Part shown: positions 25,262-38,489 of the stretch, piece by piece
Numbering within the stretch: position 1 is the first letter of the stretch
Layout: the number at the start of each line of letters is the position of its first letter
Source: a virus
Strand: one strand, 5' to 3'
DNA: 64,000 bases
Virus record (IMG/VR): IMGVR_UViG_3300045972_000807
Location: 107,757-171,756 of that record
The notes under the pieces: model-generated
What the model was told of the DNA's origin: nothing
The model's database searches: none
The model's input: only the letters and a program-made list of their open reading frames with translations
Translations under genes and position numbers: made by a program

Positions 25262-25618
25262 TCAAATCACAATCAAATTGCCTGCACCGGAGGCGCCACT
25301 ACCTGAGGAACCGTTCTTAAGGGCGTTAAGAAGCGGGTCTAGTTTAGGAATACGCAAGGTCATTCCAACCTTAACGTCGTTAACCGAATCGTAGAGGCCG
25401 TTGTAGTGCAGCAGCGCGTACCACAAGAAGCGTGAACCCAGATACTTGGCCGCGATGCCCGGGAGATTAGCCTCGTCACCCGCCTGGACAGTTATGGTGC
25501 GCTCTGCAGGCACGGTGAAGCGTATGTTATTAACCGAGCATTTCAGGATGTCCCAACGTCCCGAATCCTGAGCGCATACTGTGGCGTAATTTTCGTAGTC
25601 GTGTGTGCTATTGGGCAT
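25262..25618 (-). CDS. LysM-containing baseplate protein (gp53/gpX-like)
   Basis: 118 residues. Residues about 45-95 form a LysM-like unit (AGDEANLPGIAAKYLG; LWYALLHYNGLYDSVNDVKV; GMTLRIP). Small LysM proteins sit between the tube-end and hub genes in contractile tails and are thought to bind the hub or peptidoglycan. A Gly/Ser-rich tail follows. Confidence 0.78.
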   Translation of the reverse strand: MPNSTHDYENYATVCAQDSGRWDILKCSVNNIRFTVPAERTITVQAGDEANLPGIAAKYLGSRFLWYALLHYNGLYDSVNDVKVGMTLRIPKLDPLLNALKNGSSGSGASGAGNLIVI

Positions 25619-26726: not shown

Positions 26727-28067
26727 CTATACCGATGCCATCTGACCGTTAGGTAATCTAAAAGGCTCTTCTGTTCTAGCTGATGCTTGCGGGTCTACTC
26801 TACGCTTGGGACCGCCACCACTGCCCCCTTCGCCACCACCCTCAGCCGAAGCTACTTGGGTGGGAGCAGCTTTAACCTTGGTGGACGTTGAGGTAGACGC
26901 TGTTACCTTTGGGGGCTCTATAGAAGCTAGCTGAATAGGCTCAGGAGTTCTTTGTGACGCTGCTAACTGCTGCGGCCTTTGACTACTCATAACCCCTATA
27001 CTCTTAGCTACTGCTACCTTCTGACCGCTAACGTCTACATTGGCGGCAGCGTAATGAATCTTCATTGACGCTTCAGCGTTCCTGAGGTAGTTACCTAAAC
27101 CGCCTTGCGTCAATTCAGATGCCTGGTTAGCCACAAAGCGTTTTGTTTGCTCGTCCCACTTTGTAGAATCTTTCTCAGAAAGCATCTTGTTTACAGTACC
27201 AGCGCCCAGGTTATGGGCCGCGTAGAGCAAGCCTAGCGTTGTCTCTTTGTATCCCGCAGCAGCAACCGCCGATGCGATACGCTTTCTGTTTATCACCATA
27301 AGCTTAGCAGTAGCAAGAGCATTGAGATAAGGATCATACCTGGGATCATCTGAACCGCCTGTTAAAGCTGGGAGTTTTAGACCCGAACTTTTTATGTCCT
27401 CCCAAGCTGATTTACCAATTTGGCCCAACCCTAGATACTGGGTGCTACGAGCTCTGGGGTCACCACCCGACTCTAAATGAATCATAGCCCTAAGCCACGT
27501 AACATTTTCCCCTACCGCCTTAGCTGCTCTTGCTATAGCACTGTCCACTGACTCACTGTTATCTTTTGATAACATTGTTTCGGACTTCCCAGACATGGGC
27601 GTCGTCCTAGGCGCAGTGGAGGATGCCGAGGCGGGTCCTTTCTCTACTTTAGGGGTTGCAACTTCATCTGCAATACTCTTGTTGATCTCGTCTAGCTGCG
27701 GATCAGCATCATCTACATCCGCTCTTGACGTACCTGGGTACGCCCCAGAGCTACCCGCGGTTGACGCGCTTTCTGCTGTACTTGCCATAGCCTTTTTACC
27801 AGCAAGCAACGCGGCTATACCCCCGAGGGTTAGCATAACGCCCTTAAGCGATATCTTAGACAAGATACTTTTCTTGTTCTTAAGAGACTCTTTACCGCCT
27901 TCGTTCTTACTTGCCTCCTCGTTCTTTTTCTTTTGACCTAGTAGAACGCTAACGGTATTCCGCAGGGTAAGGATAACCTGACTATCATCGTTAGCCGGCT
28001 TTTCGTCTGGAAGATGCTTAACCTCAGGGGGCTTAACTAAGCCAAGTGCTTCCTTGTCTATTTTCAT
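26727..28067 (-). CDS. tail-associated lytic transglycosylase (SLT)
   Basis: 446 residues. The SLT domain is clear: LRAMIHLESGGDP (catalytic Glu at about 199), YLGLGQIGKSAW at about 211-222, and AAHNLGAGTV. A short hydrophobic stretch at about 75-90 and long Ser/Thr/Ala-rich linkers flank it. It should cut glycan strands during genome entry. Start codon overlaps the tape-measure stop by 4 nt, consistent with a virion enzyme delivered by the tail. Confidence 0.85.
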   Translation of the reverse strand: MKIDKEALGLVKPPEVKHLPDEKPANDDSQVILTLRNTVSVLLGQKKKNEEASKNEGGKESLKNKKSILSKISLKGVMLTLGGIAALLAGKKAMASTAESASTAGSSGAYPGTSRADVDDADPQLDEINKSIADEVATPKVEKGPASASSTAPRTTPMSGKSETMLSKDNSESVDSAIARAAKAVGENVTWLRAMIHLESGGDPRARSTQYLGLGQIGKSAWEDIKSSGLKLPALTGGSDDPRYDPYLNALATAKLMVINRKRIASAVAAAGYKETTLGLLYAAHNLGAGTVNKMLSEKDSTKWDEQTKRFVANQASELTQGGLGNYLRNAEASMKIHYAAANVDVSGQKVAVAKSIGVMSSQRPQQLAASQRTPEPIQLASIEPPKVTASTSTSTKVKAAPTQVASAEGGGEGGSGGGPKRRVDPQASARTEEPFRLPNGQMASV

Positions 28068-30730
28068 GCCATTGCCTGCACGTTAGTAGCGTAGAACGCC
28101 GGGTCGTTAAACATAAAGGTTGGGACACTAGCCACAGATATAGCTGAACCCCGGTTAGCTCCGCCACCACCGCCTCCTCGCCCGGCGCCGGCGCCTACGT
28201 TAGAAGGACCTTCTACCGAAGTTACAGACGAATTGTCATCTGAGGAAGCCACGGAGATCTGTCCGTTTTTAGTATTGGAGTTACCTGCGGATTTTGTAGG
28301 AGCGTCGACCGTCGACTCGCCTGCACTCTTTGTGCTAACCGGGCCAGCCCCAATGGCGTCGCCTGAGACTAAACTACCACTGCCCGATATAGCGTTCTGT
28401 GCTCCGGCTAATTGCAAGTGCTGGCGTTCCCGAGGACCTGAGATTCTCTCAAAGCCGTTCTTGGCTATGAGTCCCATGCGATCCATCTCGTCTACTTGGG
28501 AAGGATCAGCGTCCACAGCTAACCCTACCTCGTGCAAGCTACTACCTGGGGGATTAGCTGGGTTAGCTCCAGGTTTACCAGCCTTGTAGTCGGCGTAAAG
28601 CTGAGCCTGTTTTTCTCTAGACCTAAACCCGGAGTTTATCTTTAGCTTTTTACCAGTGGCTGAGTTGTAGTCAGAAGCCAAGGAGGTAAGGTTGCTAGTG
28701 GCCTGAGGCGTTAGGTCGCTTAGGTCTACGTTGCCTGTGGTGGTTACTAGGTTCTGTAATTTCTCCGAACCCGGGCCGCTTACAGACGTAGCCTTGCCGT
28801 CACTGCCGCCGTTACTGGCAATTGAAGACATTTGGGCTTGGCCGTTACCGCGTCCGCTACCAGCCGCACTAGAAGCCGCAGAAGAAGGGGCTGCTGAGCC
28901 TGACGATGCGCCTGCCTTGGACGCAGAGGCTGCTACCGAGGCGGAGTCTTTAGCCATCGCTGAAACCTGGGCTTGGCCGTTACCGCGCCCACCGCCCGCG
29001 CCAGTAGACGGTAAAGGAGCGCCAGATGTAGCCCCAGGCTTCTTAATGTTCTGTGGCGGTACTTCTAAACCAAGATTCTTCTTGAGGACTGCGGCTTCCT
29101 CAGGAGAGAACGTGGCACCGGATTCAAACTGCCACTGGTACTTCTTGATTAGTGCTTTCTTCTTTGTGCCAAACAGATCAGACGAGATACCCAAGGTTGA
29201 AGCAAACGTCGTATCCGCATTTAACCGCTCTACGCGGCTCATGTCCTGTTGAGGTTTAAGTCCCTGACCTCCAAGTGCTTTCTGGGCGCTGTTAAGCACT
29301 TTACCAGTGCCAGTCATGTTGCCTTTTTTGTCCCTAATGGACGCTGTCTCAGCCCACTTGGTAACGCCGTACATTACGGCCAAGGGCGCAACAGCCAGTG
29401 CTACTGTGCCGAGGATTCCAACAATGCTAGATATCCCCGCGCCTATGCTGGAAACCTTACTCAGCAGATCCATTGGCAAGCTATTACCGCTACCGCTGCT
29501 TGAACCTCCCCCTAATCCGTCTTTGGCCAGCTTAGCCAAAGACTTGTTTATACCCTTTAGCTCGTCGGTCTCGGCCTTAGCGTCTTCTTCAGCCCGCATC
29601 CGGTAAATGTCGTCTCCACCCGGCTCGCCTTGTGGCCTTGCTGACTCTTTAAGGTCACTAAATGGGTTGGACTTATTATTCCCAAACATCTCAGGATGCT
29701 CTTCTTTTAGGTCAGCCAGGTCATTGGCCTTCTTAGCAGCATCCTCGTTCTTTTTGTATCGGTCAGCTATGCTGATGTTATTCATTGCCCGACGGTTAGC
29801 ATTAAGGTCGTTTATAGTCCGACCTTCCCCAAAGCCCAACTTGCCCACCGTGGCTTTTGCAAAGTTGGTTAGGGTAAGAGCGTCTTTAGCGTCCTTAATA
29901 CTGTCGAGTTTACGGTTAATGAACCCCCGCTTCTCAGCAAGCTTCTCAGCAGTCTTAAACGCGGCTTGCGTGGACTCGTCTGACGCCTCAAGCTTCTTAT
30001 CTATTCTCTTCTGGATTGCCTCAAAGTCAGCTACGTTATTCTTGCGAGCGTTATCAAGCTGAAAAGCCAACAGCTTGCGAAGCTCAGCATCTCCCGTGGC
30101 CGAGGCTATCTTCATCTTTGCTTGCAAAGCATTTATAGTTTCGCGGCGATTCTTTAGGAAGTCAGCTTCCTTGCCCTTGTACTCTTCACGCCGTTCCTTC
30201 AGCTGCTCTTTCGCTATCTGTTTACCTATGCGGGTACCCAGAAGGTTAGCAGCCGCAGCATCAGCTTTTTTGGCCGCCTCTAATGAGGCCAACACCTTGT
30301 TGGCTTTTTCAGCAAACGAACCTTTGACTTCCTCTAGCTCATCTGAAAGAGCTTCTATTGCTTCAAGGTTGTCTTGGGTTTGCTGCTTCTGGTTCTTTTC
30401 AACCAATGCCCCTAGCTTCTTCTGCAGGGCGGCGACCTTCTTGGCTTCATCCCGTTCGATCTCCGCAGCCTTGCTAAAGCCCTCTATGGCAGCAAGCATT
30501 ACTTCAGCACTGGACTTTTTGTTCTCGATGGCGTCCTTCATCATAGCCTTTACCTGGGCTGCGCTCTTTTTAGAAGCGCCTGCCTTGGCGTTAGCGGCTC
30601 GGACGTGTTCCCCGGCAATGGAATTTTCAAGGTCGGCTTCGTGCTTAGCATAAGCCTCAGCATGCTTGGCATGTTGCTGCTGTACTTGCTTAGCCTTGTT
30701 GTTTCCCTTGCCTTTACCTTTGGTAGCCAT
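28064..30730 (-). CDS. tape measure protein with C-terminal M15 peptidase domain
   Basis: 888 residues from the ATG at 30730, chosen because AGGA lies 8 nt upstream; a TTG start 5 codons earlier is less likely. Residues 1-380 are Lys/Glu/Ala-rich helix typical of tape measures. A hydrophobic stretch (about 425-455) follows, then Gly/Ser-rich linkers, then a peptidase M15 domain (about 665-780) with SGFRSREKQAQLY, GSSLHEVGLAVDAD and ERQHLQL, the zinc-binding HxxxxxxD...H arrangement of D-Ala-D-Ala peptidases. At roughly 1.5 A per residue the tail would be about 130 nm. Confidence 0.82.
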   Translation of the reverse strand: MATKGKGKGNNKAKQVQQQHAKHAEAYAKHEADLENSIAGEHVRAANAKAGASKKSAAQVKAMMKDAIENKKSSAEVMLAAIEGFSKAAEIERDEAKKVAALQKKLGALVEKNQKQQTQDNLEAIEALSDELEEVKGSFAEKANKVLASLEAAKKADAAAANLLGTRIGKQIAKEQLKERREEYKGKEADFLKNRRETINALQAKMKIASATGDAELRKLLAFQLDNARKNNVADFEAIQKRIDKKLEASDESTQAAFKTAEKLAEKRGFINRKLDSIKDAKDALTLTNFAKATVGKLGFGEGRTINDLNANRRAMNNISIADRYKKNEDAAKKANDLADLKEEHPEMFGNNKSNPFSDLKESARPQGEPGGDDIYRMRAEEDAKAETDELKGINKSLAKLAKDGLGGGSSSGSGNSLPMDLLSKVSSIGAGISSIVGILGTVALAVAPLAVMYGVTKWAETASIRDKKGNMTGTGKVLNSAQKALGGQGLKPQQDMSRVERLNADTTFASTLGISSDLFGTKKKALIKKYQWQFESGATFSPEEAAVLKKNLGLEVPPQNIKKPGATSGAPLPSTGAGGGRGNGQAQVSAMAKDSASVAASASKAGASSGSAAPSSAASSAAGSGRGNGQAQMSSIASNGGSDGKATSVSGPGSEKLQNLVTTTGNVDLSDLTPQATSNLTSLASDYNSATGKKLKINSGFRSREKQAQLYADYKAGKPGANPANPPGSSLHEVGLAVDADPSQVDEMDRMGLIAKNGFERISGPRERQHLQLAGAQNAISGSGSLVSGDAIGAGPVSTKSAGESTVDAPTKSAGNSNTKNGQISVASSDDNSSVTSVEGPSNVGAGAGRGGGGGGANRGSAISVASVPTFMFNDPAFYATNVQAMA

Positions 30731-30745
30731 CGTGTGTATCCTCAA

Positions 30746-30970
30746 TTAACCGTTGCGTGACTTACGGCTGCTGTTTCGTGCTTGCGCTGCAAGCTTCTTC
30801 TGTTCAACCATAGCATTAGCTGTCTTTACGAATGCCATTATCGTGTGCATTGGAAGATTAAGTGTGTCGATGAACACACCCATTTCCCGTGCTACAAGAA
30901 TGGCCCCGTCGTCCAGATAAGAGGCTGTAAAGAAGTCGAAGAACTTATAGAAAATCGCGCACAGAGATCG
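30746..30970 (-). CDS. frameshifted C-terminal extension of the preceding gene (probable)
   Basis: 74 open codons without a good start. The frame overlaps the last 26 nt of the gene ending at 30945 and is +1 relative to it; at the overlap the upstream frame reads TTT CTA TAA, where a slip on TTT before the CTA and stop would enter this frame. It encodes YKFFDFFTASYLDDGAIL onwards and ends in a basic tail just before the tape measure. The only in-frame ATG (30883) lacks a well-spaced Shine-Dalgarno. This is the usual place of frameshifted tail assembly chaperones, so a fusion product is inferred. Confidence 0.55.
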   Translation of the reverse strand, partial: RSLCAIFYKFFDFFTASYLDDGAILVAREMGVFIDTLNLPMHTIMAFVKTANAMVEQKKLAAQARNSSRKSRNG

Positions 30971-31871
30971 TTACATCGGTAACATTCTCTGCGCCACACT
31001 CCTTGCAAATAGATTTAAGGGCGGCGGTTACGCCGTGATTTTGTGCCACGGCCCTATAGGCCTCAAGGCACTTGAACTGGGCGACGCTCATGTCGCGAAC
31101 CTTTTCAGCGCGCTCTTCGAGGGTACCTCCTTTAAGGTAGGCAGCCAGATCGTAGATGAAGACGTCTTCTTCGTTATCGCTGCGGTCAGCATAATTCTCT
31201 TCCCACTCAATGGCATCCCGCATCGTATAGACGCCCAGGTCGTAGCCACTTAACGGAGTGAGGTCCAAGGCTTTCAAGGCCTCAGGATTGAATATGATTT
31301 CCTTGAGGGTAGGACGGTCATACGTCATAATGTAGTTCAGGGAAGCCTCAGGCATCTCACCGTCGTCTACCTTATGGTTGTGCTCGGGGTTGCGACACTC
31401 TACTGCTGTGCGGCGCGGGCTAGCCGGATAAGAGAGCAACAGAATGAAATGCAATAGCCATTTGAAGTCGTAGGCGGTAAGGTCGAGTGCTGATATGCCG
31501 TCGCCTAGCAGAAAGCTAACGCCCTCAACCAAGTAGCGAGCATTGCCTTCGGCTCCGGCTCGGGTGAACTTGGCTTGGACTCTTCCTGTAACCTTCTTCA
31601 CGCTGAGTGCTTTGAAGTCGTAGAAGAAGAAGTCACTGGGGAGCTTTACCGAGTAAAAGTCGGCATCCTTTTCAGCGTCAGGCTTGCCTACTTGTTCCAG
31701 TCCCCAGGCGTCTGACGGAGACTCTTTTTTGATTACGCGTTGCTCCGGCGTGAGAATAGACTGAGGCTGAGCCTTAGGTTCCTCAACGGCTGCTCCAGGG
31801 AAGCCCCACTGTTGGGTGGCTCCTGGGTTTTGCGGCTTTAGGTTAAGCTGCTTGGTGGGGTGTGCGATCAT
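30945..31871 (-). CDS. T4 gp26-like baseplate/tail assembly protein
   Basis: 308 residues. A variable Pro/Gln-rich N-terminus (about 60 residues) precedes a domain ending with CKECGAENVTDVTISVRDFL, a CxxC followed by hydrophobic strand and Phe near the end, the pattern of T4-type baseplate hub assembly (gp26-family) proteins. CRNPEHNHK in the middle may add metal ligands. Immediately upstream of the tape measure, it also fits a tail assembly chaperone, and its 3' end appears to contain a +1 frameshift site. AGGAG precedes the ATG. Confidence 0.6.
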   Translation of the reverse strand: MIAHPTKQLNLKPQNPGATQQWGFPGAAVEEPKAQPQSILTPEQRVIKKESPSDAWGLEQVGKPDAEKDADFYSVKLPSDFFFYDFKALSVKKVTGRVQAKFTRAGAEGNARYLVEGVSFLLGDGISALDLTAYDFKWLLHFILLLSYPASPRRTAVECRNPEHNHKVDDGEMPEASLNYIMTYDRPTLKEIIFNPEALKALDLTPLSGYDLGVYTMRDAIEWEENYADRSDNEEDVFIYDLAAYLKGGTLEERAEKVRDMSVAQFKCLEAYRAVAQNHGVTAALKSICKECGAENVTDVTISVRDFL

Positions 31872-31893: not shown

Positions 31894-32826
31894 CTAAAAT
31901 TTCAAGGCTGAGTTTATTCTACCTTGTACCGAATTTATTGTGTCTTGTGCGCTCTTAACGGCGCCCTGAAACTGACTTAACTGTGCTGGGATTTTAGGTA
32001 TACCTACGTTACTTGTATCTCCGGTTGATGCTGTTACTGCCGCGATGCTTTGTATAACGGCATCCTTGCTAGAGTCGTAGTTCATTTTGAAATCGTCTAC
32101 GCTAAGCGTTAACGAGGACTCCAATGCAGCAGCCGCCCCAGACGTTAGCTGATAGTCTCCCCAGGCTGTAGGCCAGCAACCTAGCAGTTGTATGTCGATC
32201 ACCACCTTTCTCGTAGGGTCCAAGATAAACACAAAGATGTCTTTCTTGTAAGCCACGGGTGGCTGGTAAAAGTTGTCATCTCTGTACACCGAACGTATCC
32301 AGTTATTACAGAAATTAAAAGCAAGGCCAGACACGTCCGAATATATCTTTACCGTGCAGGTTCCTAGTGTAAACCACTCGGCATACTTCTTTTCCTTACC
32401 GGCCACAAACTTTTGGGAGGCCCCAAAGTTAGGCGCCGGTACTGTGATCTCATCTATGTAATACCAAGGCAAGGTATCGTTTGTCCCAGGGCTCTTGTTA
32501 ACCACGATGGCCATCCACTCGAAGTTAGTAACCGGGTCCAGACGTTTTAACAGATCGCTCTTAACGTCCCTCGCAGCAAAAGCCGCGCCTGTTGTGCGTG
32601 TGGGGCTGTTAGCGTTTTGGGTTCCACCGAACAGACTAGATATCTGCCCACTGGACGCTGACTTAAGCATCGCCGTAGGATTAACCTGCGCTATGTTTGT
32701 ACCCAGTGTGCTGTTGACCTTGGACACAAAGGAGTTTAACGGCGTGGACTTAGCGTTCAGTCCGCCGCCCATGCCTTCTACGGCGTTTCCACCTATCTTC
32801 TGGCCTAAAGCTGTAAAATCAACCAT
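31894..32826 (-). CDS. tail-tube-like structural protein, possible tube initiator
   Basis: 310 residues. Residues about 95-250 have the strand pattern of tube proteins (FEWMAIVVNKSPGTNDTLPW; YAEWFTLGTCTVKIYSDVSG; RKVVIDIQLLGCWPTAWGDY; SLTLSVDDFKMNY). The N-terminal 90 residues and C-terminal 40 are low-complexity. It lies downstream of the tube and upstream of the tape measure, where T4-like phages encode gp48/gp54 tube-baseplate junction proteins. The specific identity is uncertain. Confidence 0.6.
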   Translation of the reverse strand: MVDFTALGQKIGGNAVEGMGGGLNAKSTPLNSFVSKVNSTLGTNIAQVNPTAMLKSASSGQISSLFGGTQNANSPTRTTGAAFAARDVKSDLLKRLDPVTNFEWMAIVVNKSPGTNDTLPWYYIDEITVPAPNFGASQKFVAGKEKKYAEWFTLGTCTVKIYSDVSGLAFNFCNNWIRSVYRDDNFYQPPVAYKKDIFVFILDPTRKVVIDIQLLGCWPTAWGDYQLTSGAAAALESSLTLSVDDFKMNYDSSKDAVIQSIAAVTASTGDTSNVGIPKIPAQLSQFQGAVKSAQDTINSVQGRINSALKF

Positions 32827-33076: not shown

Positions 33077-33367
33077 TTAAGACTGGTAGGCCTTGCGTAG
33101 GAAGTTCATGTCCGCTTTGTCCAAAATGTCAACAGTGGCATGCTTTGCGTTTCTAACACTTGGAAGTATCAGACTGATTAGCCCGCCGTCCTCCTCAGAG
33201 GTTTTAGGATTTTCAGCCATAGAAGTTAAAGCAGTTTCTAACTCCTTTAGCTGAGCTAGCTTTTCCTTTAGCAACTTTTGCAGAGCCGGACTCGGCTCTG
33301 CTGGGCGATTGGCTGCGATTACCTTGGTGCGGGATGCGATAGCCTTGATGTGTTGTTCGTTAATCAT
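33077..33367 (-). CDS. virion-module protein with N-terminal IKAIA motif, 96 aa
   Basis: Not recognised. It begins MINEQHIKAIASRTKVIAA, which resembles the first 20 residues of the next upstream protein and parts of two others nearby. The middle is a charged coiled-coil-like helix (LQKLLKEKLAQLKELETALT). Located between tail tube and tube-initiator genes. Confidence 0.62.
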   Translation of the reverse strand: MINEQHIKAIASRTKVIAANRPAEPSPALQKLLKEKLAQLKELETALTSMAENPKTSEEDGGLISLILPSVRNAKHATVDILDKADMNFLRKAYQS

Positions 33368-33394: not shown

Positions 33395-33736
33395 TTAGAA
33401 CAGCGTTTGCTCTGTGCTAAACTTCTTCTTAGCAAGTTCGTAGACTACCCTATACGTGTAGACTACCCAATCAGTTTTATCCCCAGCGTCTTCTGGGCTA
33501 AACCCAATTTGGTAGGTTCCATCTCTGAGCTCACCTGCCTCAAAGGAAACGCCTGGGTAATCTTTTTTCAAAGCCTTAACGGTGGCTCGGGCCAAGTCAT
33601 TAAGCTTCTTACCACTTTGTGCGACAGCAGCGTTTTCAAAGTTGTCTTTAACCGCGCTAACAAAAGCCGCGTCAGCCTTAGCGGTTACTTTGCTACGCTC
33701 AGCTATAACCTTGACGTGTTGTGTGTTGATGCTCAT
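33395..33736 (-). CDS. virion-module protein with N-terminal VKVIA motif, 113 aa
   Basis: Not recognised. It starts MSINTQHVKVIAERSKVTAK, aligning with the product at 33077; the remainder is unrelated (helix, then beta-like DGTYQIGFSPEDAGDKTDWV). The ATG at 33736 has GGGG about 6 nt upstream; an in-frame ATG lies 4 codons earlier. Sits directly downstream of the tube gene. Confidence 0.6.
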   Translation of the reverse strand: MSINTQHVKVIAERSKVTAKADAAFVSAVKDNFENAAVAQSGKKLNDLARATVKALKKDYPGVSFEAGELRDGTYQIGFSPEDAGDKTDWVVYTYRVVYELAKKKFSTEQTLF

Positions 33737-33750
33737 TACGTGCCCCATGT

Positions 33751-34266
33751 TTAACCAACGATCTCTGAAGTACGATCCATGCTGAATTTGCAGGTGTACG
33801 TCAAGAGACCTGAGGTGTTATCGAGCGTAGCTGTGCCCAGCTCCAATGGATAGAACTGTTCGATCTTGATGCGCTTGGTAATGTTGCCAGGAGCATCGTA
33901 CAGGTTCAGTTCGGCATCCACGGCGTAGTTGGCTTTGTAGTTGCCAGTGTTCGCCTTAATGTCACGGACGAAATCCATCCAGGCCAGCATCAGGTTGCGG
34001 GTAGTTTGGTCACGGGTCTCGTACACTGTGAAGTCAATGTCTGCTGCCCAAGTGCGGCGGCCAGGGTAGTTGAAGCCCAAACCGTGAGCCTCAACCTTGA
34101 AGGCTTCCTGGGTGACCGCAGGGATGGTGGTACCTGTGCAACGGAACGTAAAGTCCCGTGTAGAGTACGAACCACCTGGCACTGACGGCAACCAGATGGC
34201 CCAGTCGAAGGAACTTTGAGCATCAACCACTTGGGCCATGTCTTGTAGGGATACGCGTGCTGGCAT
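33751..34266 (-). CDS. tail tube protein (gp19-like)
   Basis: 171 residues, the normal tube length. Residues include FDWAIWLPSVPGGSYSTRDF, DIDFTVYETRDQTTRNLMLAW and KIEQFYPLELGTATLDNTSG, the strand-helix-strand pattern of T4 gp19-type tubes. Codons are C/G-ending, as in other abundant virion genes, and TAAGGA lies before the ATG. Forms the rigid inner tube inside the sheath. Confidence 0.82.
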   Translation of the reverse strand: MPARVSLQDMAQVVDAQSSFDWAIWLPSVPGGSYSTRDFTFRCTGTTIPAVTQEAFKVEAHGLGFNYPGRRTWAADIDFTVYETRDQTTRNLMLAWMDFVRDIKANTGNYKANYAVDAELNLYDAPGNITKRIKIEQFYPLELGTATLDNTSGLLTYTCKFSMDRTSEIVG

Positions 34267-34298: not shown

Positions 34299-34994
34299 TT
34301 AACGCCCACGCTGAGCATCGAAACTCAATGAAGCGCTGTAACGATTGTCTGAAGCCATACCGCCATAGCTGCTAGACGTACTAAGAATCCAAGGACCTTT
34401 GATAAACGTAGAGCCTCCACCCATGGTGGAGCCATCAGCATTACCGAAGGGCTCGTATTCGCCTTTTTTGAATCCTAGAGCCATAGCTCGTCTTTGGACT
34501 TCCGCCAAAGCCTTGCTACCGGCGTAGCCTCCGCGCTTAGACCAGTAAGCTACGTTGCCTCGAAACTCTGCGCCAGACGGCAAGATTTCTTTAGCCATCT
34601 TTTTAAGCATTGCGGAGAAAGCTTCATCGATACCCTCGAATACTGTATCGTCCTTTGACAAGGTCAACCAGGTCATCTCGGAACCTTGCTCAACGGTTAA
34701 CGGCCACTTGCCGTTCTTCAGAAACTTCCAGTTCAGAGTACCATCGGCACTAAAGCGGTTACTAGCACGACGTTCAACCAGTGCCCACCCTAGCTTCTCC
34801 AGAGACAGGGCTATAGCATCGCCTTGCTTGCCTTCAAAGATTAAGGTGAAGGCGTCCATGAACTGCGGCTTCTCTCCCTTGTAGAGCAAGGCATCCATTT
34901 TGCGTAGCTGGTCCAGAAACCTAACGGCTTCTCCGTTCGAGATTGGGGCGGCCGTAATCCCCAATCTCGAAGCTATGGCCTTTATTGCGGTCAT
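34299..34994 (-). CDS. virion-module protein with N-terminal IKAIA motif, 231 aa
   Basis: Not recognised. MTAIKAIASRLGITAA at the start resembles the motif at 33077. The body is an alpha/beta domain with many Lys and Trp (LEKLGWALVERRASN; KFLKNGKWPLTVEQGSEMTW), and the C-terminus is Ser/Gly-rich. AAGGA precedes the ATG. Between tube and homing endonuclease; probably a virion or morphogenesis protein. Confidence 0.62.
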   Translation of the reverse strand: MTAIKAIASRLGITAAPISNGEAVRFLDQLRKMDALLYKGEKPQFMDAFTLIFEGKQGDAIALSLEKLGWALVERRASNRFSADGTLNWKFLKNGKWPLTVEQGSEMTWLTLSKDDTVFEGIDEAFSAMLKKMAKEILPSGAEFRGNVAYWSKRGGYAGSKALAEVQRRAMALGFKKGEYEPFGNADGSTMGGGSTFIKGPWILSTSSSYGGMASDNRYSASLSFDAQRGR

Positions 34995-35012: not shown

Positions 35013-35180
35013 TCATCGACGCGTAACTGGTGAATCCACAGAGCTAGCTTTTTCTTTAGCTAACTCTAACCTTTTGGCAATCTCAGCAATTGCCTTAACT
35101 GAAGTTTTAGCAACAACCTCACTGTCTACCTTGGGTAACAGGAAATCGTCGTCTGAATCTCTAGTGTACGTCTTAATCAT
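35013..35180 (-). CDS. small virion-module protein with VKAIA motif, 55 aa
   Basis: Unrecognised short ORF in the gap between the 231-residue gene and the homing endonuclease. An acidic start (RDSDDDFLLPKVDSEVV) precedes SVKAIAEIAKRLELAKEKAS, which again carries the V/I-K-A-I-A pattern seen in its neighbours. Its stop lies 19 nt before the next start. Confidence 0.55.
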   Translation of the reverse strand: MIKTYTRDSDDDFLLPKVDSEVVAKTSVKAIAEIAKRLELAKEKASSVDSPVTRR

Positions 35181-35187
35181 TTAAGCC

Positions 35188-36429
35188 TCATACGGTTTCG
35201 TCAAACCTTTCGGGGAACTTCTGATGTAAAATTGTTTCAAGCTTTTTGTACGTAGGACTTTTTACGACTCTAACGGTTTCTTTGTCGTGTATTGCTAGCA
35301 TGAACCTAATACCGTTAGCTCTACATACCTTATTGGCTGCGTCAAACTTTGGCTTGTTACGCTTGTACTCGTTCTCCCGAAAGAACAAACCGTCGTACTG
35401 CTTAGCCTCAACCATGTACCCTTCACCACCCCAGACAATAAAAGCGTCTGGCTGATACAGAGACTGCTTGCCTTTTAAGGGGTTAATGTAGAACACTTCG
35501 GGCATATCTCCAAAGTCAGTAGAAACTACAATAGCACCAGCATCTTCTAGCGCGCTAAGAACTTGGGGCTCGCATCCTCGGCATTCATGCACATTACCGA
35601 ACTGGTCTGTCCATTCCTTAGCGTTCCGCTGAGAGTGCGTTACCTTTTTGGCTATTTCCGGGTTATGCATCTGATGCGCGTAACCTGTGCGCTCTAGCAT
35701 GCTAGCTTCACGGCGAGCTTGAACCTCACGTAGTAGGCACGCGTGTTTAACCCCGTGTCTTCGCATAGAATTTTCTATTTTCTTTGCGGTCATTCCTGGG
35801 ATACAGCTTGGGTTTACAACTCCTTTACCGTACCGCGACTCTAGCGCAGCTATTTGTCTTTGCTGGACCTCTAAGCTACACGACGGACTGTTTCCACCGT
35901 ATCTTATATTATTCGTACGCTTGAATTTTTCTAAAACGTTTTTGTTCTGCAGGGCGTGGTCTACTCCGCACCGCCTACGCATAGTTTTTATAATCTTATT
36001 CTTTACCTCGGGAAGCTGCATGGAGCATTTAACTCCATAGTTTTCCTGAAAGTAAGCTAAGCGTTTGCTGGCTTGTTCTTTGTAAAAACCTGACTCAGTG
36101 TGACCAACTTTACAGCACTCGTTGCTGCAAAACTTTAAAGGACCTTCAGTGAACCATAAGCAGGGTTTACCGCAAACGTCACACTTATTCTCCCGCATAA
36201 AGCGTATTGTACGCTCTATTATTGACACGGGAGTACTGGGGCAAAGAACTTGAAGCTGGTCTAAGAGCTTTGGGAATTTCTTGCTTAGTCGAACGAACCG
36301 TCCGTTACCTCTAGCTTGGCACTTGTCATCTAAACATGCTTTCCGCAAGGAAGCAAATAGCGTAGGCTTAACTGACTCAAGGCGACGGAGTGTTTTGTAT
36401 ATTTCAGAATTGGGTTGACGGCTGGCCAT
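35188..36429 (-). CDS. freestanding homing endonuclease-like protein
   Basis: 413 residues from the ATG at 36429 (a GGA-containing site lies upstream). A zinc-finger-like cluster (CDVCGKPC...KFCSNEC, about 83-105) is followed by five or six repeats of about 30 residues (ENYGVKCSMQLPEVKNK; RCGVDHALQNKNVLEKFK; RHGVKHACLLREVQARR) of the type seen in phage homing endonucleases. A PD-(D/E)xK nuclease site follows: QPDAF at about 326-330 and VEAK at about 340-343. It lies between sheath and tube genes, unrelated to virion assembly, so it is probably a mobile gene that cuts a related phage at this locus. Confidence 0.78.
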   Translation of the reverse strand: MASRQPNSEIYKTLRRLESVKPTLFASLRKACLDDKCQARGNGRFVRLSKKFPKLLDQLQVLCPSTPVSIIERTIRFMRENKCDVCGKPCLWFTEGPLKFCSNECCKVGHTESGFYKEQASKRLAYFQENYGVKCSMQLPEVKNKIIKTMRRRCGVDHALQNKNVLEKFKRTNNIRYGGNSPSCSLEVQQRQIAALESRYGKGVVNPSCIPGMTAKKIENSMRRHGVKHACLLREVQARREASMLERTGYAHQMHNPEIAKKVTHSQRNAKEWTDQFGNVHECRGCEPQVLSALEDAGAIVVSTDFGDMPEVFYINPLKGKQSLYQPDAFIVWGGEGYMVEAKQYDGLFFRENEYKRNKPKFDAANKVCRANGIRFMLAIHDKETVRVVKSPTYKKLETILHQKFPERFDETV

Positions 36430-36533
36430 GATGTTCCACAGGTAGTTATGAAATCCTGTAAGGTCTCGGCTATCTTGACTACCCAAGAGCGCGGTTAATT
36501 ACTCCGCTTCACCGAGACCAACAGAAACTAGAA

Positions 36534-38489
36534 TTAAGCTGACATGCTTGCAATCGTATTTTCCGATATGGTCAAACCTTGCTTGCTAATGCCCAGGGTG
36601 AGGGCAATAACGCGCGTAGCCAGGATAGGTGTAATCAGAATCGTGATAGCCAAAATGCCGCTGTTAGCCAGCACATCCGGGTTGTTGGTCTTGTCACAGA
36701 TGACCTTGAAGGAACTGATGCCGCGACCGGATTGAACGCCACCGAGGTAGCTATTCAGGCCAGTGGTCAGTTGCATCTTCAGGATGTCATCCAGAGGTTC
36801 TTGCAGACCGTACAGCAGGTAAGCGTAAGAGGCGCGCTTGATGATGTTGCACAGGAAGCGAACGTTCAGGAACTGGAGTGCGCTGCTCTGTGAAGCCAAG
36901 GTAGCCTGTTCCCACAAGGCAATGCCTTGACCCGGGAACTTCCGCATGTAGTTAACCTGCGCCTGATACAGAGGACTGAAGTCGCCGTCTTCGTAGGTGT
37001 AGCGAACATCCAGAACCTGCGACAGCAGACCGCGGTTCAAGCCTGCGAAGGAGTACCAAGGCTGACCGACGTTGGTCGTATTGGCATACAGACCAGCCAT
37101 CATGCCCGACGGAGGAACAAACAACAGCTTGCCGCTGGTGGGATCAGACTCCAGCAAATCAGGAGTGAACAGCGCGGAGTACGAGCTATTCAGGTTCAGC
37201 GTGATGTTGCGATAGTCAATCGAGTCGGGACGAGATTGCTGACCGCTAGGCACGTCGAGGAACGCCACGCATTCAGCACGTTGCTGTGCGATAGCATCCA
37301 TGTGATCCTGGATGATCGGAGTAGCGCGACCTGCGTTAATCATCGTGTCGATCACATACAGCTGCTTATTGCTAAACACGCTCCATGCTTTGTTGATCGT
37401 AGCCGCAGTAGGCGCTGAGCCTGAAGTGCCGCCGGTCATAACGACGCTAGCCTGTACTGAGTTCAACACAGGGTACGTGCTGAGATGAGCCAGGTTCGAC
37501 ATAACCCGAATGTATTGGCTATACGGGTTGATGCGCTGAGTGGTTTCGCTTTGTGTGCCCAGATCGTCAGTGAAGTCGTTGAGGGTACAGGTAAACACTT
37601 CCACAGGAGTAGAGTTGCTGAGGCTCAGCTTGTAGACGCTCAGGGTGAAGCCTGTGCTGATTGTCAGCTGGGCTGTGCTGATAATCGGGCCGAGTGCTTG
37701 ATTGGGCACATTCAGTCCGTCATCGACCCAGGTATTGGAAGCCGTACCCACTTGGGCCAAAAGGCCCATGTTCTGGATAGCTTGTGTGCGACCGTATATC
37801 TTGTAACCGATGGAACCTGCAACAGGCGCCCAGGTAATGGTCACGCTTGACTGCGTAGGCGATGCGGAGATGATAACCGTAGCTGGAGTTGACACCAACG
37901 ACTCAGCACCGCTGCTATTGATACTCGACACCGCGTAGGTGTAAGTACCGGAACCCATCGAACCGCCGGACGTAGTGCCTGTGGAGATGATGGTGTCGGG
38001 AGTGGCTGGGTTCTGTGCTTGAACGCTAACCGCGTAGTCGCCGTTAGCGTAGCTACCAGGACCGTCAGCGGGATAGAACACGTAGACGGGAGTCTCACCG
38101 GAGCCCACGTAGTTCACCCAGTTGGGGTATTGCAGTTCGGTAAGGGACAGGCCGCCTGGGATAGAGCGCAAGGCGGTCATGCCGTTCACGTCTTGCAGCA
38201 TAACCATTGCAGCGTACTTGGCATCGTTCTCCACGCAACGGTTAGCCCAGAGAGCTTGGCCGAACTTGAAGTAATCGAGGCCCATGTACTGGTCAAAGGA
38301 AACCGCAGCGTTCGGATTGCCGTAGGCGTCCAAATAGCTTTGTGCGTCAGTCCACAAACGGGGGCCCAAAGGACCTTTGCCGGACACAACAACCTGTGAT
38401 GCAACAGCATTGGCAACTTGTGTCAATGTCTGCGACAGGTTAACTTCTTTGATATAGACGTCAGACGCCTTGGATGCGAGATTGCTCAT
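36534..38489 (-). CDS. tail sheath protein with inserted FN3-like domain
   Basis: 651 residues. N-terminal YIKEVNLSQTLTQVANAVAS and C-terminal ELMISSFK-type strand pattern (GRGISSFKVICDKTNNPDVL) fit contractile sheath proteins; the length equals T4 gp18. Residues about 165-265 form an inserted fibronectin-III-like unit (SGTYTYAVSSINSSGAES; VTITWAPVAGSIGYKIYGRT) resembling the C-terminal domain of the J-like wedge protein. The insert would decorate the outside of the sheath. Codons are C/G-rich and AGGAAA precedes the ATG. Confidence 0.87.
   Translation of the reverse strand: MSNLASKASDVYIKEVNLSQTLTQVANAVASQVVVSGKGPLGPRLWTDAQSYLDAYGNPNAAVSFDQYMGLDYFKFGQALWANRCVENDAKYAAMVMLQDVNGMTALRSIPGGLSLTELQYPNWVNYVGSGETPVYVFYPADGPGSYANGDYAVSVQAQNPATPDTIISTGTTSGGSMGSGTYTYAVSSINSSGAESLVSTPATVIISASPTQSSVTITWAPVAGSIGYKIYGRTQAIQNMGLLAQVGTASNTWVDDGLNVPNQALGPIISTAQLTISTGFTLSVYKLSLSNSTPVEVFTCTLNDFTDDLGTQSETTQRINPYSQYIRVMSNLAHLSTYPVLNSVQASVVMTGGTSGSAPTAATINKAWSVFSNKQLYVIDTMINAGRATPIIQDHMDAIAQQRAECVAFLDVPSGQQSRPDSIDYRNITLNLNSSYSALFTPDLLESDPTSGKLLFVPPSGMMAGLYANTTNVGQPWYSFAGLNRGLLSQVLDVRYTYEDGDFSPLYQAQVNYMRKFPGQGIALWEQATLASQSSALQFLNVRFLCNIIKRASYAYLLYGLQEPLDDILKMQLTTGLNSYLGGVQSGRGISSFKVICDKTNNPDVLANSGILAITILITPILATRVIALTLGISKQGLTISENTIASMSA

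What the first reader, a model, noticed from the sequence alone, without database searches (positions are those of the whole stretch)
30746..30970. Probable +1 frameshift producing a gp26-like fusion upstream of the tape measure
A 74-codon ORF without a good start overlaps the 3' end of the preceding gene in the +1 frame. Its overlap reads TTT CTA TAA, a slow Leu codon followed by stop. Tail-assembly-chaperone genes in this position are classically expressed by frameshift. The ORF is conserved-looking (YKFFDFFTASYLDDGAIL).
Basis: partly seen in the sequence, partly recalled or inferred. Interest (0 to 1): 0.62.

Follow-up and report, generated by a model that had tools for sequence, protein, structure and literature searches.

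The report
Chaperone made by +1 ribosome frameshift
This large phage appears to make two versions of a protein that helps build its tail by having some ribosomes skip one base at a specific UUU-C site near the end of the gene; the site is kept across more than 30 distantly related phages, while other relatives use a backward slip or two separate genes to reach the same result.

Summary
On the minus strand, the gp26-like gene (31871..30945, 308 aa) ends GAT TTT CTA TAA. A 74-codon +1-frame ORF (30970..30749) overlaps its end and has no start codon before 30883. The only site in the overlap where the P-site tRNA can re-pair perfectly one base downstream is TTT-C (30953..30950). A +1 slip there gives a 374-residue fusion.

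All 33 homologous junctions of this type (Motura, phiRSL1, BcepSauron, PhiXhv, QdP_Psa3, phiXF1, IMG/VR contigs) have UUU-Y there (UUU-C in 32) followed by a homologous extension of about 55-70 aa. In the pairs tested it is under purifying selection in the shifted frame only. Four others have U UUU UUC and a −1 shift. Six phages (PaBG, Lu11, HRDY3, NCTB, Yoloswag, Sen-NF) carry the same domain in one frame as a long gene next to a short one, as T4 does with gp26/gp51.

Most likely this is a tail-assembly chaperone pair (short TAC-N, long TAC-NC) made by programmed +1 frameshifting. It is a new variant of a known kind. No expression was measured. No stimulatory structure was found, and CUA is not notably rare.

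The parts
30945..31871 (-). Gene for the short form (TAC-N, gp26-like), 308 aa, with C-terminal CxxC zinc-ribbon-like motif CKECGA
   Evidence: phrog_13792 E=1.8e-16; AF2 model pLDDT 82 matching phiRSL1, Motura, PaBG and T4-like 'baseplate hub' proteins
30950..30953 (-). +1 slip site UUU_C (P-site UUU re-pairs with UUC)
   Evidence: UUU-Y at the aligned place in all 33 +1-type homologous junctions, UUU-C in 32
30945..30947 (-). Zero-frame stop codon TAA, end of short form
30746..30970 (-). +1-frame open reading frame; the part from 30949 on is the C-terminal extension (TAC-C) of the long form, stop at 30748-30746
   Evidence: profile E=2e-5 without the window in the profile
30746..31871 (-). 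Predicted long form (TAC-NC), 307 + 67 = 374 residues, by +1 frameshift
   Evidence: inference
28064..30730 (-). Downstream gene, 888 aa, probable tape measure protein with a VanY-type peptidase domain; ATG at 30730 preceded by GAGG
   Evidence: position, VanY E=6.5e-9; positional counterparts in phiXF1 and NCTB are annotated tape measure and NCTB's hits tape-measure PHROGs
31894..32826 (-). Upstream gene, second gp19-like protein (tube/tube-initiator like)
   Evidence: phrog_45 E=3.6e-18

Best explanation
The gene at 31871..30945 encodes a tail-assembly chaperone of the T4 gp26/gp51 kind. Most ribosomes stop at the UAA at 30945 and make the short form (TAC-N, 308 aa). A fraction reaching UUU CUA UAA with tRNA-Phe in the P site let it slip one base forward from UUU to UUC, skip C30950, and read UAU AAG UUC... 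to the stop at 30746, making a 374-aa long form (TAC-NC). By analogy with lambda gpG/gpGT, the short form coats the tape-measure protein made from the next gene and the extension recruits tail-tube subunits. Shown here: ORF geometry, homology, conservation of the slip site, and selection on the shifted frame in relatives. Inferred: that the slip occurs, its efficiency, and the chaperone role.
For: (1) In the 8-codon overlap the only codon whose tRNA re-pairs perfectly at +1 is UUU-C. (2) All 33 +1-type homologous junctions have UUU-Y (UUU-C in 32, UUU-U in L026) at the aligned Ser/Thr-Phe-Phe/Leu place and a homologous +1 ORF. (3) The slip Phe is UUU in 31/31 aligned rows (27 +1, 4 -1) against 99/258 at other conserved Phe columns (p=2e-12, not corrected for relatedness). 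(4) pN/pS of the extension is 0.16-0.52 in the shifted frame against 0.9-3.0 in the others for 12 pairs of relatives. (5) The extension is fused in one frame behind the same domain in HRDY3, PaBG, NCTB, Lu11, Yoloswag and Sen-NF (E=4e-15 to 2e-8), each next to a short paralogue that ends at or near the slip position. (6) Position between tube-like gene and probable tape measure. (7) phrog_13792, PF12322 in relatives, and the AF2 fold match T4-like hub-assembly chaperones. [quoted passage not shown]
Against: No expression data. No conserved downstream structure (mean z -0.7 over 32 sequences) and no Shine-Dalgarno-like stimulator seen just upstream of the slip, so the efficiency is unknown. The A-site codon is not consistently rare. 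The window's own extension is the most divergent (3-residue insertion near the junction). HMMER finds no Pfam hit for the window protein itself.
Confidence: 0.88

Rival explanations
1. The downstream ORF is a separate small gene translated from its own start (ATG 30883 here; annotated that way in Motura, BcepSauron and PhiXhv).
For: GenBank records annotate separate ORFs starting at ATG. Several relatives have an ATG about 8-9 codons after the slip with a weak AGGA in front.
Against: The window has no ATG/GTG/TTG in the shifted frame until codon 22 after the slip and no Shine-Dalgarno motif there. L007, L018, L074 and phiXF1 also lack a start near the junction, and start positions are not shared. 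The FFP(L) residues just after the slip are conserved in the shifted frame. The same domain is fused in frame in six other phages.
Confidence: 0.06
2. A sequencing or assembly indel has split what is really one continuous gene.
For: The junction contains a short T run (TTTT).
Against: 32 other +1-type junctions have the same +1 break at the same place with different local sequence and different zero-frame stops. A single ORF would remove the short form that the two-gene relatives keep separately.
Confidence: 0.01
3. The long form is reached by a -2 ribosomal shift or by RNA-polymerase slippage rather than a +1 ribosomal shift.
For: -2 and +1 lead to the same frame; phage Mu is known to use -2 in its tail-chaperone gene (general knowledge, not tested here).
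Against: In the window neither UUU nor CUA can re-pair two bases back. T runs are 3-6 bases, short for polymerase slippage (general knowledge). Conservation of UUU-Y is what a +1 slip of tRNA-Phe predicts.
Confidence: 0.04
4. The overlap ORF is chance and not expressed.
For: About 2% of positions in the +1 frame of known window genes open into 66 or more codons.
Against: Jackknife profile match E=2e-5 as the only hit in the window; purifying selection in relatives.
Confidence: 0.01

Closest known systems
T4 gp26/gp51 and T4-like tail-assembly chaperones (PF12322, phrog_150; Vladimirov, Gautam & Davidson 2022, cited in PMC12846349; the paper itself was not available)
   Same: Same protein family by profile chain and predicted fold. 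T4 gp26 matches phrog_150 positions 14-235 and gp51 13-280, i.e. short and long forms.
   Different: T4 uses two genes. Here one gene with a +1 shift. Published T4-like and Vandenendeviridae cases use polyT -1 sites (PMC12846349).
Phage lambda gpG/gpGT tail-assembly chaperones
   Same: Position before the tape measure, short plus frameshifted long form, small C-terminal extension.
   Different: Lambda shifts -1 (PMC5009743); no detectable sequence or fold relation found here (HK97 chaperone 2OB9 only E=5.7).
Programmed +1 sites UUU_Ynn (Yersinia yopN-tyeA; influenza PA-X UCC_UUU_CGU)
   Same: Same slip tetranucleotide, tRNA-Phe UUU to UUC.
   Different: Those are a type III secretion gene and an animal virus gene. 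Here it is a conserved phage tail gene, with a short zero-frame tail of 1-12 codons.
Haloarchaeal myovirus HSTV-2 (likely +1 in the tail-chaperone gene, PMC5009743) and SPP1 17.5/17.5* (-1 at UUUUUUC, PMC6316719)
   Same: HSTV-2: +1 direction in the same gene position. SPP1: same heptamer as the -1 relatives found here.

Membership tests
Tail-assembly chaperone pair (TAC-N/TAC-NC) | Gene lies between tail tube and tape measure | tested here: met
   Sheath 36534, tube 33751, tube-like 31894, this gene, then 888-aa probable tape measure; same order in Motura, PhiXhv, BcepSauron, phiXF1
Tail-assembly chaperone pair (TAC-N/TAC-NC) | Long form with shared N-terminus reachable by a recoding site near the 3' end | tested here: met
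   ORF geometry and conserved UUU-Y / U UUU UUC sites
Tail-assembly chaperone pair (TAC-N/TAC-NC) | Both forms produced, absent from the virion, binding tape measure and tube protein | not testable with these tools
   needs expression, proteomics and binding assays
Tail-assembly chaperone pair (TAC-N/TAC-NC) | Fold shared with solved TACs (HK97 gp13, 2OB9) | tested here: inconclusive
   Foldseek E=5.7, prob 0.08, TMt 0.37
T4 gp26/gp51 family (PF12322 / phrog_150) | Sequence profile match | tested here: met
   Only through intermediates: window and relatives in phrog_13792; PaBG and NCTB long forms above the PF12322 cut-off (26.0 and 32.3 bits vs 24.5), phiRSL1 just below (22.0). The window protein alone has no Pfam hit
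T4 gp26/gp51 family (PF12322 / phrog_150) | Fold match | tested here: met
   AF2 model vs BFVD: phiRSL1, PaBG, and T4-like 'baseplate hub assembly' proteins at E=1e-7 to 1e-5, target-normalised TM mostly 0.5-0.6
Programmed +1 frameshifting at UUU_Y | Conserved UUU-Y at the only workable slip position | tested here: met
   33/33 +1-type junctions
Programmed +1 frameshifting at UUU_Y | Selection on the shifted frame after the zero-frame stop | tested here: met
   12 pairs of relatives, pN/pS 0.16-0.52 vs 0.9-3.0; the window itself was too divergent to pair
Programmed +1 frameshifting at UUU_Y | cis stimulators (structure, Shine-Dalgarno-like, rare A-site codon) | tested here: inconclusive
   no conserved structure, A-site codon not consistently rare; no upstream Shine-Dalgarno-like motif seen by eye
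Programmed +1 frameshifting at UUU_Y | Measured frameshift product | not testable with these tools
   needs reporter or mass spectrometry

The most novel reading that the evidence does not exclude
Within one chaperone family the solution to making the short and long forms has been swapped repeatedly at one conserved Phe-Phe/Leu junction: +1 at UUU-Y (window, phiRSL1, Motura, BcepSauron and others), -1 at U UUU UUC (at least two origins nested in the +1 clade), and two side-by-side genes (PaBG, Lu11, HRDY3, NCTB, Yoloswag, Sen-NF). The +1 site would work as a bare tetranucleotide without structure, stop or rare codon.
Probability: 0.6. Interest if true: 0.62.

Novelty: new variant of a known kind. 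Interest (0 to 1): 0.52.

Why it matters
Frameshifted tail chaperones are usually −1, and a published tool paper states that no general motif for +1 shifts has been identified (PMC10885494). This family supplies more than 30 divergent examples of one +1 site, UUU-Y, in a fixed gene position, plus −1 and two-gene relatives as natural controls. It corrects the annotation of phages such as Motura, BcepSauron and PhiXhv, where the extension is listed as a separate hypothetical gene, and links the two-gene arrangement of T4 (gp26/gp51) to frameshifting relatives, so switching between mechanisms can be studied directly.

Tried and rejected
Near-identical phage DNA: none. Single-sequence scan of viral contigs with the window protein: no relative; alignments were needed. 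Scan of bacterial genome contigs: none. tblastn with the window's extension alone: only chance hits. Conserved downstream RNA structure: not found. Rare A-site codon as general trigger: shifted A-site codon commoner than the zero-frame one in only 14/28. Solved-structure sequence search: none; PDB fold search: nothing significant. The Vladimirov 2022 paper and the HSTV-2 paper are not held, so whether they already mention this group could not be checked. No held paper pairs phiRSL1 with tail assembly chaperone, and of the two pairing it with frameshift the tail paper's frameshift passage concerns phage G itself (the other was not opened).

Full report
The window is bases 107757-171756 of a 171,756-base virus record. 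All genes concerned lie on the minus strand. The order is sheath (38489..36534), a gp19-like tube gene (34266..33751), small genes, a second gp19-like gene (32826..31894), the gene in question (31871..30945), an 888-aa gene with a VanY domain (30730..28064), a transglycosylase gene, a PmgG-like gene, a short gene (25618..25262), a phrog_25710 gene at the usual hub position and a gp5/gpV-like spike gene. This is the usual myophage order in which a tail-assembly chaperone precedes the tape measure.

Observation. The gene ends GAT TTT CTA TAA at 30956-30945. The +1 frame is open for 74 codons, 30970..30749, with its stop at 30748-30746, and its first start codon is ATG at 30883. In the eight-codon overlap the only codon whose tRNA can re-pair perfectly one base downstream is TTT (to TTC). 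A +1 slip there gives ...VRDF|YKFFDFFTASYLDDGAILVAREMGVF..., 374 residues in all.

Homologues. tblastn found the gene in Motura, BcepSauron, BcepSaruman, PhiXhv-12/15/16 and Ep032, then in QdP_Psa3, phiXF1, NCTB, PaBG and HRDY3. Alignment-based scans of IMG/VR gave about 25 more distinct loci, including a 231,255-base contig whose 384-aa protein matches the phiRSL1 entry in size. The junctions fall into three classes.

Class 1, +1 (33 junctions counting the near-identical PhiXhv-12 and Ep032 separately): TTT followed by C in 32, TTT followed by T in L026. The next zero-frame codon is CTT in most, CCC in several, and CTA, CTG, CGC or TCC once each among the 28 tabulated. The zero frame then stops after 1 to 12 codons of unrelated sequence, while the +1 frame continues with a homologous extension (FFPLxSxKExMDRHxLIAxEFxxxxxDxMPIYRFQQLSExAxxRRDxRIxAA in the main group).

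Class 2, −1 (L033, L045, L049, L050): T TTT TTC, the U UUU UUC heptamer reported for SPP1 17.5 (PMC6316719), with the same extension in the −1 frame. L050 is seen in two separate contigs and three further contigs carry the same arrangement, so this is not a single read error. On a tree of the short domain, starred branches force at least two changes for the −1 state. Several branches are long, so deeper placement is unsure.

Class 3, two genes (PaBG, HRDY3, Lu11, NCTB, Yoloswag, Sen-NF): a short gene that ends at the Phe-Phe position in four of them (...SFFV*...AFFL*...SFFRNI*; less exactly in Yoloswag and Sen-NF), followed by a long gene that carries the extension in the same frame (extension profile E=4e-15 to 2e-8). 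T4 gp26 and gp51 show the same short/long relation to one profile, phrog_150, though the extension profile does not reach T4 gp51.

Tests. A profile of the extensions built without the window finds, among all stop-to-stop fragments of 25 residues or more in the window, only 30970..30749 (E=2e-5; next E=3.9). At the slip position Phe is UUU in 31/31 aligned rows (27 +1, 4 −1) against 99/258 at other conserved Phe columns (Fisher p=2e-12). In L018 and phiXF1 UUU is otherwise used in 1/45 and 3/59 Phe codons. These counts are not corrected for relatedness, and the slip codon was located as a TTT, so the figure is an indication rather than a probability. In 12 pairs of relatives the extension beyond the zero-frame stop has pN/pS 0.16-0.52 in the shifted frame and 0.9-3.0 in the other two. 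Start codons in the shifted frame are at inconsistent places; the window has none before codon 22 after the slip and no Shine-Dalgarno motif. Downstream folding energies are not unusual on average (mean z −0.7). The A-site codon is not consistently rare.

Family. The window protein matches phrog_13792 (E=1.8e-16), as do the two-gene relatives; PaBG and NCTB long proteins pass the PF12322 cut-off. An AlphaFold2 model of the short form (pLDDT 82, pTM 0.75; residues 1-63 disordered) matches Motura, phiRSL1, NCTB, PaBG and a series of 'baseplate hub' and 'baseplate hub assembly' proteins of T4-like phages (E=1e-21 to 1e-5), and nothing solved. T4 gp26 and gp51 are hub-assembly chaperones (PMC3004832) and have been identified as the tail-assembly chaperones of T4-like phages (Vladimirov et al. 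2022, cited in PMC12846349). My recollection of that abstract is that some T4-like groups frameshift and T4 uses genes 26 and 51; the text could not be read here.

Conclusion. The best explanation is a programmed +1 ribosomal frameshift at UUU_C that makes the long form of a gp26/gp51-type tail-assembly chaperone. UUU_Ynn is described as especially +1-prone in bacteria (PMC5009743). +1 shifts in tail-chaperone genes have precedent (HSTV-2, likely), so this is a new variant of a known kind. What appears new is the family-wide UUU-Y +1 site in this jumbo-phage group and the exchange of +1, −1 and two-gene solutions at one junction. No product has been measured.

Noticed in passing
window 35188-36486 (-): 432-aa gene with DUF7487 (E=2e-26) and TnsA-like endonuclease (E=4e-7) domains, sitting between sheath and tube genes; probably a free-standing homing endonuclease.
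   Followed up: partly
window 33077-33367, 33395-33748, 34299-34994, 35013-35180 (-): Small neighbouring genes share a similar motif at or near the N-terminus (e.g. QHIKAIASRTKVIA / QHVKVIAERSKVTA / IKAIASRLGITA), possibly a shared targeting or cleaved propeptide sequence.
   Followed up: no
window 28064-30730 (-): Probable tape-measure gene carries a VanY-type peptidase domain (about residues 670-750 of 888), and the next gene (26727-28067) an SLT transglycosylase domain.
   Followed up: no
L033 4925-4945; L045 3760-3790; L049 3710-3730; L050 3755-3772: Relatives with a -1 heptamer T TTT TTC in place of the +1 site, giving the same extension.
   Followed up: partly
L038, L039, L040, L087, L088, L089: Two-gene short/long chaperone arrangement in NCTB, PaBG, HRDY3, Lu11, Sen-NF and Yoloswag, annotated only as hypothetical proteins.
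   Followed up: partly
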